A DNA stretch of 64,000 bases from Tritonibacter multivorans (GTDB lineage Bacteria; Pseudomonadota; Alphaproteobacteria; Rhodobacterales; Rhodobacteraceae). This document shows positions 35,933 to 41,652 of the stretch, piece after piece; position 1 is the stretch's first letter, and each line of letters begins with the position of its first letter. The notes beneath the pieces are model-generated. The model saw only the letters and a list, made by a program, of their open reading frames with translations. It was not told the DNA's origin and ran no database searches. A program made the position numbers and the translations under genes. Location of the stretch: positions 62,001 to 126,000 of the forward strand of contig NZ_CYSD01000033.1 of the NCBI RefSeq assembly GCF_001458415.1, in the 5' to 3' direction.

Positions 35933-36694
35933 ATGGCTCAGACCCGCCTTCGCCTTGGCGTGAACATCGACCACGTGGCCACCGTGCGCAATGCGCGGGG
36001 CGGGGCCTATCCTGACCCGGTCCGTGCCGCCAAACTGGCGGAGGACGCGGGTGCGGATGGCATCACCGCCCACCTGCGCGAAGATCGCCGCCATATTACC
36101 GATACCGATATCGAAGGCCTGATGGAGGCCCTGTCCGGTCCGCTGAACTTCGAGATGGCGGCCACGGATGAGATGCAGAAAATCGCCCTGCGTCACAAAC
36201 CGCATGCGGTGTGCATTGTCCCGGAAAAACGCGAAGAGCGCACCACCGAAGGCGGTCTGGAAGTGGCCCGCGAAGAAAACCGTCTGGCCCATTTCATTGC
36301 GCCCCTGCGGGATGCGGGCTGCCGGGTGTCGATTTTCATCGCGGCCGATAAAAAACAGATCGAAGCCGCGCACCGGATCGGGGCCGAGGTGATCGAACTG
36401 CACACGGGTGCCTATTGTGACTACCACGCCGAAGGCGATTTCGAGGCCCGCGACACAGAGCTGGCAGCCTTGACGGACATGGCGGCCTTTGCGCATTCGC
36501 TTGGGCTGGAAGTGCACGCAGGTCATGGGCTGACCTATGAAACCGTCGGCCCGATTGCGGCCATTCCCGAAGTGATGGAGTTGAATATTGGTCACTTCCT
36601 GATTGGCGAAGCGGTCTTTCGTGGCCTGGCGCCAGCGGTGCAGGAAATGCGCCGGCTGATGGATGACGCACGTGAAGGGGGTGCAGAGGCATGA
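35933..36694 (+). CDS. pdxJ: Pyridoxine 5'-phosphate synthase
   Basis: Condenses 3-amino-2-oxopropyl phosphate with deoxyxylulose 5-phosphate to make PNP, the DXP-dependent route to vitamin B6. The 253 residues form a TIM barrel with [45 protein letters not shown] and [10 protein letters not shown]. The ATG at 35933 has GGGAG upstream; an in-frame GTG at 35891 is less likely. The stop overlaps the next gene by four bases. Confidence 0.97.
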
Positions 36695-37128
36695 CTGTGA
36701 ACCTCAAGCGCTATGCCGGGATCTATGTTGTGACCCTAGTGGTCGCGGCCCTTGCCATTTGGGCGCTTCGCCAGATCGCGCAGATTGATCTGGCGAGCTC
36801 TTTCGTGCCGTTGATCCCGGCGATGGTGGCTGCGATGGTCGAAGGTCACAAACTTGCCAAAGAAGGCGCAGATTACCCCAAGGGCAAACCGGCCTGGATC
36901 GCATCGGCGAAGATGACGGGCGTGGCACTGGCGTTTAATGGCGGGCTGGGACTTGTGGTGTTCCTGGCCCTGAGCGGCGCAGGCTTGCAGATCAGAAGTG
37001 TCATGGTCTTTGTGGGCTTTCTGGCGATGTATTGTGTGTTCTGGATGGTGGCCAACCGGGTGTTCCTGACCCAAGGCTACCGCAATGCCATGGCGACCAC
37101 GACATCCGGTAAAGCGGGGCGCTCATGA
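36691..37128 (+). CDS. ABZJ_00895-type small membrane protein
   Basis: A 145-residue protein with four hydrophobic helices and the loop [21 protein letters not shown], which resembles the ABZJ_00895 family as I recall it; the function is unknown. It overlaps pdxJ by four bases at its start and acpS by four bases at its end, so it is locked into the pdxJ-acpS-lepB operon. No signal peptide is seen. Confidence 0.75.
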
Positions 37129-37606: not shown

Positions 37607-38443
37607 ATGGCCACCAAGACCACCGCAGGAAATTCATTTGTCGAAACCATCAAGACCATTGTCTATGCGCTGCTGATTGCCGGGGTGTTCCGCACCCTGT
37701 TCTTCCAGCCCTTCTGGATCCCGTCGGGGTCGATGAAGCAGACACTGCTGATCGGTGATTTCCTCTTCGTCAATAAGATGGCCTATGGCTATTCCTATGC
37801 GTCCTGCCCGACCATCCGCATCCCGCGTCTGGGTGTGAACATCGATGCAAAAACCATCTGTGGCTTCATCGATGGGGACAACACCCGTGTTCTTGGCGGC
37901 GAGCCAGAGCGGGGTGATGTTGTTGTGTTCCGTCATCCGGTGACCGGCATCGACTTTATCAAACGTCTTGTCGGCATGCCGGGCGACAAGGTGCAGGTGA
38001 AGGGCGGCGTGCTTCACATCAATGGCAAGGCAGTTCAGCTGACCGCAGACGGCACCTTTGACGAAGTCAAAGAGCCGCAAGGGCCGATCGGAAACTATCC
38101 GCGCTGCATCAATGGCCCCGTGGGCGAAGGCGGCCTCTGTCAGAAGGAACGTCAGATCGAAACCCTGCCGGGTGGCAGCAGCCATGCGATCCTGAACATC
38201 CGCAACCAATCGACAGATCACACCGGTATCTACCATGTGCCCGAAGGGCATTATTTCTTCATGGGCGATAACCGCGACAACTCCACCGACAGCCGTGTGG
38301 ACCAGTCGCTGAACGGTGTGGGCTATGTGCCGTATGAAAACCTAATCGGTCGCGCGGACCGGATCATGTTCTCGGCGGCGGGCCGGTCCATGCTGTTCTT
38401 CTGGGACTGGCGCAGCGATCGGTACTTCAAGGCGATTGAATGA
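37607..38443 (+). CDS. lepB: Signal peptidase I
   Basis: Cuts signal peptides from exported proteins on the periplasmic side of the inner membrane. The 278 residues have an N-terminal anchor (TIKTIVYALLIAGVFRTLFF), the nucleophile Ser in WIPSGSMKQTLLIGDF, the general-base Lys in FIKRLVGMPGDKV, and MGDNRDNSTDSR. A six-Cys insert (YASCPTIRIP, KTICGF, YPRCIN, LCQKE) is unusual and could hold disulfides. Its stop overlaps the lepB-like gene by four bases (ATGA). Confidence 0.96.
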   Translation: MATKTTAGNSFVETIKTIVYALLIAGVFRTLFFQPFWIPSGSMKQTLLIGDFLFVNKMAYGYSYASCPTIRIPRLGVNIDAKTICGFIDGDNTRVLGGEPERGDVVVFRHPVTGIDFIKRLVGMPGDKVQVKGGVLHINGKAVQLTADGTFDEVKEPQGPIGNYPRCINGPVGEGGLCQKERQIETLPGGSSHAILNIRNQSTDHTGIYHVPEGHYFFMGDNRDNSTDSRVDQSLNGVGYVPYENLIGRADRIMFSAAGRSMLFFWDWRSDRYFKAIE

Positions 38444-39450
38444 CACTTGCGACGTTTCTGTCCGCCGCGTTTCATTGGCGCGGCCGGACGGGGCGCGTGG
38501 GGTTCGCTGCGGCATTCGTTCTGTGTGCCGCGGTTTTTGTCATTTGGGCGAACCAACCAAAGCTGAGCTGGGACCGAGTCTGGGGGGCGCCGGTTCTGGC
38601 GCTGACCGTCCTGCTGCTGTTTGGCCATGCCCGCCGCCGTTTGAATGACCTGGGGTGGTCTGGGCATTGGATGTGGCTGATGGCGGTGCCGCTGCTGCAT
38701 CTGGGCCTGTCGCTTGTGCTTGCGCTGCGCCGCTCTGCCAAAGAAGATCAGATCCTGCATGTGGGGCTCTGGGGCAAACGCCTTGTCTATGTGTTTGCCA
38801 TGCTCGTCGCCTCGCGCGGGCTTTGGGAACCCTATTGGATCCCGTCGGGTGCGATGAAGCCCGCGCTTCTGGTAGGGGATTATGTGCCCGTGACGCCGGT
38901 CTGGGCCACGCCACAGCGCGGCGATGTGCTGGTCTATCGGCATCCGGCGCAAGAGGTGGACTTTGTCGGCCGCCTGATTGGTTTGCCGGGCGATGAGCTG
39001 CAAATCAAAGCCGGTGTGCTGCATCTGAACGGCGTGTCTGTGATCCTGCGCGATGCTGGTGTCTTTGCAGAGCTGATGGAGCCACAGGGCCCGCAGGCCC
39101 GGTTCCCGCGCTGTGTGAACGGCGCCGTGGGGATTGGCGCGATCTGCGAAAAGACCCGTCAGATCGAAACCCTGCCAAATGGGGCCAGCTATGCGGTGCT
39201 GGATATTCGCAGGCAAACGTTGGACCAGACCGGGATCTATCAGGTGCCAGAGGAGCATTATTTCTTTCTGGGCGACAACCGCGACAATTCCATGGACAGC
39301 CGGATGGCGGTTTCCGTCGGTGGCGTTGGGTTTGTCCCCATTGAAAATGTGGTTGGGCGGGCCGATCGGGTGCTGTTTTCTGCCGCGGGGCGGTCGCTGG
39401 CGCATGTCTGGACCTGGCGCGGCGACAGGTTCTTCAAGGCAATCCACTAG
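38440..39450 (+). CDS. DUF805-signal peptidase I-like fusion lacking the Ser-Lys dyad
   Basis: A 336-residue protein. Residues 1-100 form a DUF805-like membrane region (FHWRGRTGRVGFAAAF, then ARRRLNDLGWSGHWMWL); the rest aligns end to end with the LepB encoded just upstream. Box B reads WIPSGAMKPALLVGDY, so the nucleophile Ser is A138. Box D reads FVGRLIGLPGDEL, so the Lys base is G177. The box E segment LGDNRDNSMDSR is kept. The fold is conserved but the classical protease site is absent. The two genes overlap by four bases. It may be a substrate-binding partner or regulator of LepB; this is inference. Confidence 0.88.
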   Translation: MTLATFLSAAFHWRGRTGRVGFAAAFVLCAAVFVIWANQPKLSWDRVWGAPVLALTVLLLFGHARRRLNDLGWSGHWMWLMAVPLLHLGLSLVLALRRSAKEDQILHVGLWGKRLVYVFAMLVASRGLWEPYWIPSGAMKPALLVGDYVPVTPVWATPQRGDVLVYRHPAQEVDFVGRLIGLPGDELQIKAGVLHLNGVSVILRDAGVFAELMEPQGPQARFPRCVNGAVGIGAICEKTRQIETLPNGASYAVLDIRRQTLDQTGIYQVPEEHYFFLGDNRDNSMDSRMAVSVGGVGFVPIENVVGRADRVLFSAAGRSLAHVWTWRGDRFFKAIH

Positions 39451-39576
39451 GGTCACAGCTGTCGTGCCGCTGATGTGCTTGTCTCGCGCGGGCGGGGGCG
39501 GTATTTGCTGTGCAACCTGTCGGGCGGGCTGAGCCGCCCAGATGAAGCGGCCCGGCGAAGAGGGCAAGGAGATCAC

Positions 39577-40263
39577 GTGAAACTATCCAAGGACATGCGC
39601 GCGTTCCAAGGGCGCCTGGGTCATGAATTCACCACGCCCGAGCTGCTGATCCGCGCGTTGACGCACCCGTCGGTGTCGACCGCCAACCGCGAAGACAACC
39701 AGCGGCTGGAGTTTCTGGGCGACCGTGTTCTGGGGCTGGTGATGGCCACCGCCCTGTTGGATCACGACCGCAAAGCCACCGAGGGCCAGCTGGCGCCGCG
39801 GTTCAATGCGCTGGTGCGCAAAGAGGCCTGCGCCGATGTGGCGCGTGAAATCGACCTTGGGGCCGTGTTGAAACTGGGCCGGTCCGAAATGATGACCGGT
39901 GGACGCCGCAAACAGGCGCTGTTGGGCGACGCAATGGAAGCCGTGATTGCCGCTGTCTACAAAGATGCGGGATTTGAGGCCGCACAGACCGTGATCCTGC
40001 GTCTGTGGGGGAACCGGATCGGTGCCGTTGAAGACGACGCGCGCGATCCCAAAACCGCGCTGCAGGAATATGTGCAGGCCCGCCGTCAGCCGCCGCCCGC
40101 CTATGTGCTGGTGGAACGCTCTGGCCCCGACCACGAACCGGTTTTCACCATCGCCGCCCAGCTGCAAGATGGCACCGAAGAACGTGCCACCGCTGGCTCT
40201 AAACGTCTGGCCGAACAGGCCGCTGCCAAGGCGCTGCTGGCGAGACTGGAAAACGACACCTAA
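39577..40263 (+). CDS. rnc: Ribonuclease III
   Basis: Cuts double-stranded RNA in rRNA and mRNA processing. The 228 residues contain the signature [20 protein letters not shown], the second acidic pair in [14 protein letters not shown], and a C-terminal dsRNA-binding domain ending [23 protein letters not shown] at 39577 after AAGGAG is chosen; the open frame starts at 39475, but that extension looks unlike the family. It is the normal partner of era, though here a reverse-strand gene lies between them. Confidence 0.96.
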
Positions 40264-40269
40264 AGGCGC

Positions 40270-41652
40270 TTAGGTCACTCGGATGTATCCGGCGAGGCCG
40301 GTTTTCTGATGTTCGATCACATGGCAGTGGAAGGCCCAGTCGCCGGGGTTATCTGCCACCAGCGCAATGTCGATCACCTCGTCTTTCAAGAGCAGCGCCG
40401 TATCTGTCAGCAAGGGCGGCAGGGCGCGCCGGTTTGACCGGATTGGCACAAACACCAGCCCATGCAGGTGGATGGGGTGCAGGTTCGGGCTCTCATTGCG
40501 CAGCCGCAGGACATAGGATTTGCCGCGTTTCAGCACCGCCAGCGGTCCCGTGCCCGTCGCGGCATCTCCGGCCCAAGGGGTGCGGTTGATCGACCAGAAA
40601 CTATACCCCAGCGACCCACATAGCCCATCGTTGGGCGCTCCGCCTTCGGGTGTCCAGCCAAAGACGAACTCCAGCATGTCGGCCCGGTCCAGATCGGGCA
40701 GGGCGACAGGGTTTTCAGGAAGCGGTGGAAGGTCGCGTAGGTCGCGCGCCAAGGACGCTCCAATACTTCGCAGCTGCGCCATGATCCGCGTTTTGCGCCC
40801 CGGAAGTTCGGCGATGACCGAAACATCCTGGCCTTCGCCTTCGGGCATGCGCAGGGCAAAGTCGACCCGCTGTCCGGGGCCAAGGTACAGTGGCGCGTCA
40901 GCAGAGGGGAGGGCAAGCAATTGCCGCACCGGGTGCCCGTCCCATGCAATGATGCGCGCCTGCGCCGCTCCCAGATGCAGCCGATAGATTCGCGTGGTGT
41001 CGGTATTGGCAATCCGCAACCGCACCAATGATCCCGCCGTATGGTCATAAACGGGGTCCTGATCCCAGTTGGTTGTCAGCACATTGCCATGAGTGCCCCC
41101 GCGCGCTGCGCCGCGTGCGGTGTAATAGGGCAGGAAACTGCCATCATCCGCCAGCCGGAAGTCGCGCAGGTTCAGGGTCTCTTCGCTGTCAAAGCCTGTG
41201 TCGCTGTCTTCTTCGATCACCATCATGCCGGTCAGCCCATGCGCCATCTGCGCCATTGTCATGCAATGGGGGTGATACCAGTAGGTGCCTGCGTCCGGCG
41301 GCGTGAAGTCATAGGTGAACGTTTCTCCCGGCGCGATTGGCATCTGCGTCAGATAGGGAACGCCATCCATCGCATTGGGGATTCGCAAGCCATGCCAGTG
41401 CATTGCGGTGTAATCGGGCGTCTGATTGGTGACCGCAAGGCGCATGGGCTTGCCCACACGGCCCCGCAGGACGGGGGGCGGTGCATCCGGGCTGAGGCTC
41501 ACCAGACCTTGCGTGATGCTGTCTCTGAACCGATAGGCCGCTTTTTGGATCACCAGCTCCTGTGTGGCAGGCCCCTGCGCCAGAAGACGACCTGCCGCCG
41601 CAAGGCCAAGTGCCGCAGCGCCCGAGGACAAAAGGAAATCGCGACGCTTCAT
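40270..41652 (-). CDS. Multicopper oxidase (CumA/laccase-like)
   Basis: A 460-residue periplasmic cupredoxin-type oxidase with a twin-arginine signal (MKRRDFLLSSGAAALGLAA). Copper ligands are seen in AMHWHGLRIPNAMDGVPYLT, GTYWYHPHC, NLHPIHLHGLVFVPI and AFHCHVIEHQKTGLAGYI. The residue at the type 1 axial position is Leu (after HCH-x3-H-x4), not Met, which in laccases goes with a higher redox potential. It probably oxidises Cu(I), Mn(II) or phenolics. It lies in reverse between rnc and era, with its stop only six bases after that of rnc. Confidence 0.9.
   Translation of the reverse strand: MKRRDFLLSSGAAALGLAAAGRLLAQGPATQELVIQKAAYRFRDSITQGLVSLSPDAPPPVLRGRVGKPMRLAVTNQTPDYTAMHWHGLRIPNAMDGVPYLTQMPIAPGETFTYDFTPPDAGTYWYHPHCMTMAQMAHGLTGMMVIEEDSDTGFDSEETLNLRDFRLADDGSFLPYYTARGAARGGTHGNVLTTNWDQDPVYDHTAGSLVRLRIANTDTTRIYRLHLGAAQARIIAWDGHPVRQLLALPSADAPLYLGPGQRVDFALRMPEGEGQDVSVIAELPGRKTRIMAQLRSIGASLARDLRDLPPLPENPVALPDLDRADMLEFVFGWTPEGGAPNDGLCGSLGYSFWSINRTPWAGDAATGTGPLAVLKRGKSYVLRLRNESPNLHPIHLHGLVFVPIRSNRRALPPLLTDTALLLKDEVIDIALVADNPGDWAFHCHVIEHQKTGLAGYIRVT

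What the first reader, a model, noticed from the sequence alone, without database searches (positions are those of the whole stretch)
38440..39450. Signal peptidase I-like protein that lost both catalytic residues and gained a DUF805-type membrane domain
The gene overlaps true lepB by four bases and matches it along the whole protease region, including the WIPSG box and the LGDNRDN box. However, the nucleophile Ser is Ala (A138) and the general-base Lys is Gly (G177). The frame is intact and codon use normal, so it looks selected. An inactive LepB paralogue coupled to active LepB could bind signal peptides, form a complex with LepB, or regulate it. The DUF805-like N-terminus adds an unusual membrane module.
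Basis: partly seen in the sequence, partly recalled or inferred. Interest (0 to 1): 0.75.

Follow-up and report, generated by a model that had tools for sequence, protein, structure and literature searches.

The report
Inactive twin of signal peptidase LepB
Directly behind the gene for the enzyme that trims exported proteins lies a gene for a look-alike that has lost both catalytic residues; related bacteria carry versions that keep them, and they seem to have been lost many separate times, so the look-alike may have become a binding helper or may be on its way out.

Summary
Window 38440-39450 encodes a DUF805-like membrane region plus a type I signal peptidase (S26) domain, overlapping lepB by 4 bases, with Ser and Lys replaced by A138 and G177. 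It belongs to a LepB2 family: 26 of 394 sampled same-family genomes have DUF805+S26, 25 of the 26 beside lepB. Of 27 aligned paralogues 14 keep the dyad and 13 lost Lys, in about 9 independent losses (7-12 over 300 bootstrap trees); all 27 LepB rows keep both. Inactivity is therefore recurrent and lineage-specific, not fixed. Against a congener that shares G177, omega is 0.32 (0.22-0.47), versus 0.07 for lepB: real but relaxed constraint. Among 18 congeneric genomes only this one has an intact gene. Best reading: an active second signal peptidase turned peptide-binding pseudo-peptidase, dispensable and being lost in its genus. Streptococcal SipA (Ser to Asp, Lys to Gly, cleft kept) is the precedent. 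A LepB complex is untested. New variant of a known kind.

The parts
37607..38443 (+). lepB, active type I signal peptidase, Ser and Lys present
   Evidence: Pfam Peptidase_S26 E 1.2e-46, TIGR02227 over cut-off; dyad seen
38440..38443 (+). 4-base ATGA overlap between the lepB stop and the paralogue start
   Evidence: ORF coordinates; sequence
38440..39450 (+). LepB2-like pseudo signal peptidase, 336 aa (DUF805-like region plus S26)
38470..38745 (+). DUF805-like membrane region, residues 11-102
   Evidence: Pfam sub-threshold in the window protein; 17 of 17 members match at E <= 0.01; profile A4 made from these N-termini finds mostly short open frames over positions about 6-127 in other families of the class
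38767..38823 (+). last membrane segment before the S26 domain, residues 110-128, at the place of LepB's own anchor
   Evidence: family-mean hydropathy; alignment
38851..38853 (+). codon 138, Ala in place of the nucleophile Ser
38968..38970 (+). codon 177, Gly in place of the general-base Lys; also Gly in congener G014
39271..39303 (+). intact GDNRDNSMDSR box (residues 278-288), Ser284 retained
39451..39579 (+). 129-bp spacer before rnc, where 23 of 26 lepB-adjacent relatives have the paralogue stop overlapping the rnc start
39580..40263 (+). rnc (RNase III), next gene on the strand
   Evidence: Pfam Ribonucleas_3_3 E 1.6e-32

Best explanation
The gene is a degenerate but still folded member of a second signal peptidase family (LepB2: DUF805 membrane region plus S26 domain) that sits in the lepB-rnc operon of a minority of genomes in this family. 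Shown: its kin in other genera often keep the Ser-Lys dyad, the dyad has been lost repeatedly while LepB beside it never changes, and here both residues are gone while the rest of the signal peptidase signature is intact. Inferred: the ancestor was a working membrane-anchored peptidase; after the dyad was lost the domain kept its peptide-binding cleft and acts, if it still acts, by binding signal peptides or exported-protein segments at the membrane without cutting (chaperone, decoy or LepB accessory), as the catalytically dead homologue SipA does in Streptococcus pyogenes. The function is non-essential, and the gene is being lost in this genus.
For: Dyad replaced. Window keeps 47 of 48 S26 core columns, against 44-48 in the 14 dyad-keeping paralogues. 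The 27 paralogues are one side of a 100/99 branch against the 27 LepB rows; 9 losses on the best tree, 7-12 over 300 bootstrap trees. Omega 0.32 (0.22-0.47 NG86; YN00 0.16, ML 0.25) against congener G014, although G014 is now a pseudogene; Gly177 shared. Lys is replaced by small residues (Ala 6, Gly 4 of 13), which are not one base change away from Lys codons; Ala+Gly make up 20.8% of these proteins, binomial p 2e-5 if rows are independent, 0.004 for 6 of 9 losses. Ser284, whose E. coli equivalent stabilises Lys145 (PMC4049620, passages), is kept in 14 of 14 dyad-keeping and 5 of 13 dyad-lost copies, while the neighbouring Arg281, Asp286 and Arg288 are kept in 13, 12 and 12 of 13. Precedent SipA: Asp and Gly at the dyad, no detectable peptidase activity, cleft kept, essential for pilus polymerisation.
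Against: The gene is absent or eroded in 17 of 18 congeneric genomes. Omega is several times that of lepB, and the short 3' piece (50 codons) does not exclude neutrality (0.23-1.04). Dyad-lost copies have longer end branches (median 1.24 against 0.79; LepB 0.21) and fewer core residues (Mann-Whitney p 0.0016); one of the 13 (G398) carries a frameshift between the domains. The Ser284 link gives only 2 independent pairs on supported branches and no significance. No binding, structure or expression data: the structure prediction failed (pLDDT 39).
Confidence: 0.55

Rival explanations
1. A second signal peptidase made redundant by LepB and now simply decaying: the dyad went first, the rest is still recognisable because decay is recent, and there is no present function.
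For: 1 of 18 congeners has it intact; pseudogene in G014 (8-bp deletion and 3' deletion), C-terminal remnant in G004, possible scars in G001, G010 and G011; faster evolution and lower core conservation of dyad-lost copies; G398 frameshift.
Against: Omega 0.32 (0.22-0.47) over a period after the Lys was lost; 12 of 13 dyad-lost copies are open across the S26 domain, spread over 12 genera; preference for Ala or Gly at the Lys site; window keeps 47 of 48 core columns.
Confidence: 0.32
2. The reading frame is kept only because lepB, the paralogue and rnc are translationally coupled, so frame breaks would harm rnc; the protein itself does nothing.
For: The paralogue stop overlaps the rnc start in 23 of 26 adjacent loci, and in the window its start overlaps lepB by 4 bases.
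Against: It does not explain residue-level constraint or conserved S26 boxes; in the window the coupling to rnc is absent (129-bp spacer), yet the frame is intact; rnc directly follows lepB in 7 of 18 congeners without it.
Confidence: 0.08
3. It is still a peptidase that uses an alternative nucleophile or base.
For: S26 fold and most boxes intact; 8 of 13 Lys-lost relatives keep Ser.
Against: Both residues of the only known dyad are Ala and Gly here; the similar SipA shows no peptidase activity (PMC4049620 passages).
Confidence: 0.03

Closest known systems
SipA of Streptococcus pyogenes (signal-peptidase-like, PDB 4N31)
   Same: S26 fold with the dyad lost, Lys replaced by Gly as here, cleft kept in SipA and expected here (PMC4049620, passages)
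   Different: SipA belongs to a pilus system and its Ser is Asp; here there is a DUF805 region, and the neighbours are pdxJ, acpS, lepB and rnc. Sequence kinship to SipA was not tested.
SpsA of Staphylococcus aureus
   Same: Second signal peptidase homologue lacking two catalytic residues beside an active, essential one (PMC12445088, passages; that spsA is the gene next to spsB is recalled)
   Different: No DUF805 region known to me (recalled); found in Firmicutes. The passage calls SpsA dispensable and gives it no function.
LepB (this genome's active signal peptidase I)
   Same: S26 domain, 61% identity over residues 155-335
   Different: Paralogue lacks the dyad and about 38 residues between boxes, and adds the DUF805 region
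DUF805-S26 paralogues with an intact dyad (e.g. G022, G049)
   Same: Same domain order and same place between lepB and rnc
   Different: Keep Ser and Lys

Membership tests
Active type I signal peptidase (TIGR02227, S26) | Ser nucleophile in the PSGSM box | tested here: not met
   A138
Active type I signal peptidase (TIGR02227, S26) | Lys general base in the RxxGLPGD box | tested here: not met
   G177
Active type I signal peptidase (TIGR02227, S26) | S26 domain homology and GDNRDNSxDSR box | tested here: met
   Pfam 108.1 bits against 22.9, TIGR02227 107.7 against 47; box intact
DUF805 (PF05656) | Profile match over the Pfam cut-off | tested here: inconclusive
   Window protein 21.8 bits against 25.7; 17 of 17 members match at E <= 0.01, best 4.6e-16
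LepB2 (DUF805+S26 beside lepB; a name used here) | Domain order and place between lepB and rnc | tested here: met
LepB2 (DUF805+S26 beside lepB; a name used here) | Groups with the other paralogues and not with LepB | tested here: met
   27 paralogues against 27 LepB rows, branch 100/99
SipA-type pseudo signal peptidase | Ser-Lys dyad lost with the S26 fold kept at sequence level | tested here: met
SipA-type pseudo signal peptidase | Pilus (sortase) gene neighbourhood | tested here: not met
   Neighbours in Pfam are RelA_SpoT, DUF2062, PdxJ, ACPS, RNase III, multicopper oxidase, an Era-like GTPase, RecO, and one gene without a match
SipA-type pseudo signal peptidase | Peptide-binding cleft in the structure, no peptidase activity | not testable with these tools
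   Structure prediction failed; no assay

The most novel reading that the evidence does not exclude
LepB2 is a family of membrane-anchored signal peptidase homologues whose non-catalytic task (holding signal peptides, or acting on LepB) has been the valuable one for a long time, so that catalysis is lost again and again (about 9 times in 27 sampled copies) while the fold persists: a bacterial pseudoprotease system made naturally testable by active and inactive orthologues at one locus.
Probability: 0.3. Interest if true: 0.75.

Novelty: new variant of a known kind. Interest (0 to 1): 0.5.

Why it matters
Catalytically dead signal peptidase homologues are known from two Firmicutes cases seen here (SpsA, SipA). 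A DUF805-fused family in Alphaproteobacteria, with active and inactive orthologues at the same operon position and repeated loss of the dyad, would be a natural experiment on what a signal peptidase fold does besides cutting, and would give the uncharacterised DUF805 domain a context. If it is plain decay instead, it still shows how a duplicate of an essential enzyme is dismantled: in these data Lys is the residue always lost, often with Ser kept.

Tried and rejected
Structure prediction of the window protein with the alignment allowed by the tool (window protein, LepB, one LepB of L003) gave pLDDT 39 and pTM 0.26; too poor to use, so no fold search was run. Six further genus searches to find close pairs for dN/dS in other dyad-lost lineages (G220, G215, G149, G343, G146, G448) each found a one-genome genus, so selection after loss rests on one pair. 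The first collection scan returned one locus, L003, whose match is LepB and not the paralogue. Polarising the 36 amino-acid differences between window and G014 in residues 1-137 with 16 relatives gave 12 to the window, 16 to G014, 8 undecided: no clear asymmetry. A positive-inside reading of the four membrane segments did not settle the topology. Eight paper searches were made; none listed a paper on a DUF805 signal peptidase fusion. One search (DUF805 with signal peptidase) gave one paper, and (DUF805) eight; none of these was opened. The library holds open-licence papers only.

Full report
What is there. Window 38440-39450 (+) is an open frame of 336 codons that starts inside the lepB stop (ATGA overlap) and is followed, after 129 bp, by rnc. 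The neighbours by Pfam are RelA/SpoT, DUF2062, PdxJ, a 145-aa protein without a match, AcpS, LepB, this gene, RNase III, a multicopper oxidase on the other strand, an Era-like GTPase and RecO. The whole genome has two Pfam S26 matches, LepB and this gene. Ser is A138 and Lys is G177, by alignment with LepB and with signal peptidase I chains of the PDB. The GDNRDNSMDSR box is intact. About 38 residues that LepB has between the Ser box and the GDV box are missing. The DUF805 call is below Pfam's cut-off for this protein but holds for the family: 17 of 17 members given match, and a profile of the N-termini finds matches in 43 other genomes of 385 sampled in the class at E <= 1e-12; none of the 45 rows listed for them runs past profile position 127 of 161, where the S26 start lies, while the window's match does. 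Those loci were not opened.

The family. A profile of the N-terminus was run over 394 genomes of the taxonomic family, about one per genus; the only named relative fetched is a Sulfitobacter MAG, so Rhodobacteraceae or the Roseobacter group is my inference. Twenty-six of 394 hold DUF805 followed by S26; this is a lower bound, because the match list was cut and very diverged copies may hide among LepB matches. Twenty-five of these 26 lie directly after lepB on the same strand; G149's does not, and its lepB is on another contig. With G209, whose second S26 lacks the DUF805 part, 27 paralogues were aligned. Fourteen keep Ser and Lys: G022, G049, G341, G407, G439, G376, G319, G137, G447, G174, G235, G244, G441, G209. 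Thirteen have lost Lys: window (Ala/Gly at Ser/Lys), G448, G220, G149, G343 and G215 (Ser/Ala), G189 (Thr/Ala), G223 (Ser/Gln), G398 (Ser/Glu), G146 (Ser/Gly), G186 and G348 (Gly/Gly), G122 (His/Met). In G398 the two domains are in different frames; the other 12 are open across the S26 domain. All 27 LepB rows keep both residues.

Tree. With the two dyad columns blanked, the 27 paralogues and 27 LepB rows fall on two sides of a 100/99 branch; 23 of 51 inner branches are open, and G122 and G348 are long. The state kept/lost needs at least 7 changes. If loss is irreversible and the root lies on the LepB branch, the best tree needs 9 losses, and 300 bootstrap trees need 7 to 12, median 9. Median end branches are 0.79 (dyad kept), 1.24 (lost) and 0.21 (LepB).

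Is it selected? The one close relative is G014, same genus. Its copy has an 8-bp deletion at the Ser codon and lacks the last third or more of the gene, but the Lys codon is readable and is GGC as in the window, so the Lys was lost before the split. Over 187 codons omega is 0.32 (NG86; codon bootstrap 0.22-0.47), 0.16 (YN00) and 0.25 (ML); lepB gives 0.07, 0.06 and 0.07, and rnc 0.02-0.03. The first 137 codons give 0.28 (0.16-0.45), the last 50 give 0.49 (0.23-1.04), which does not exclude neutrality. Constraint is thus shown but relaxed, and it rests on a single pair.

Decay in the genus. Of 18 genomes (own included) the window alone has the gene intact; G014 has the pseudogene and G004 a 75-residue C-terminal match between lepB and rnc. 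Seven (G002, G003, G006, G008, G012, G013, G017) have lepB directly before rnc, and eight (G001, G005, G007, G009, G010, G011, G015, G016) have spacers of 197-483 bp without a significant match. The spacer ends of G001, G010 and G011 match the end of G004's remnant plus the rnc start by blastn (E 6e-14, 3e-13, 7e-8), but a profile search of the translations gives only E 0.14-0.32, so these scars are suggestive.

What the dyad-lost copies keep. In 48 columns that are nearly invariant in LepB and in dyad-keeping paralogues, the window has 47, the dyad-keeping copies 44-48, the other lost copies 23-46; the lost group is lower (p 0.0016). Ser284 aligns with the E. coli Ser278 that helps to stabilise the Lys (PMC4049620, passages). 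It is kept in 14 of 14 and 5 of 13 (Fisher p 0.0006), while residues around it stay. On supported branches only 2 independent pairs exist, so this is not significant after correction for kinship. The window keeps Ser284. The Lys site is Ala (6) or Gly (4) in 10 of 13.

Mechanism. Known (papers): SipA of S. pyogenes has Asp and Gly at the dyad, shows no peptidase activity, keeps the peptide-binding cleft and is essential for pilus polymerisation (PMC4049620, passages; PMC12984324, passages). SpsA of S. aureus lacks two catalytic residues and is dispensable beside essential SpsB (PMC12445088, passages). In C. difficile the pseudoprotease CspC activates the related protease CspB (abstract start in a listing, PMC4619724). 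By analogy I infer that the window protein, if functional, binds signal peptides or client segments at the membrane, or acts on LepB. Neither was tested.

Verdict. Operon coupling to rnc may help to keep frames intact elsewhere (stop-start overlap in 23 of 26 adjacent loci), but not here.

Noticed in passing
40270-41652: A multicopper-oxidase gene on the minus strand sits between rnc and the Era-like gene; congener G014 has one beside rnc too (L035:1092-2477), while in L003 rnc and era are adjacent.
   Followed up: partly
L038:2446-3114: G020 has an unlinked S26-like protein (Pfam E 3.5e-31) whose dyad boxes read ESEHM and FVSR, so it looks like another inactive signal peptidase homologue.
   Followed up: partly
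L086:1501-1961: In G398 the DUF805 and S26 parts of the paralogue are in different frames: frameshift or assembly error.
   Followed up: partly
L091:1423-2181: G209 has a second S26 beside lepB without the DUF805 part; G356, G121 and G289 have second S26 matches of similar extent, not opened.
   Followed up: partly
38440-39450: The window S26 part is 61% identical to its own LepB over residues 155-335, more than to its DUF805 orthologues (44-47% overall); gene conversion from lepB was not tested.
   Followed up: no
38470-38823: Four membrane segments are predicted in the family mean, but loop charges (1.9, 0.6, 1.6, 3.4) do not settle which side the S26 domain is on.
   Followed up: partly
36691-37128: A small membrane-protein gene of 145 aa without a Pfam match lies between pdxJ and acpS; a gene of similar length is in G014 (L035:5150-5584).
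   Followed up: no
39451-39579: The three lepB-adjacent loci where the paralogue stop does not overlap the rnc start (window 129 bp, G348 71 bp, G215 2 bp) are all dyad-lost.
   Followed up: no
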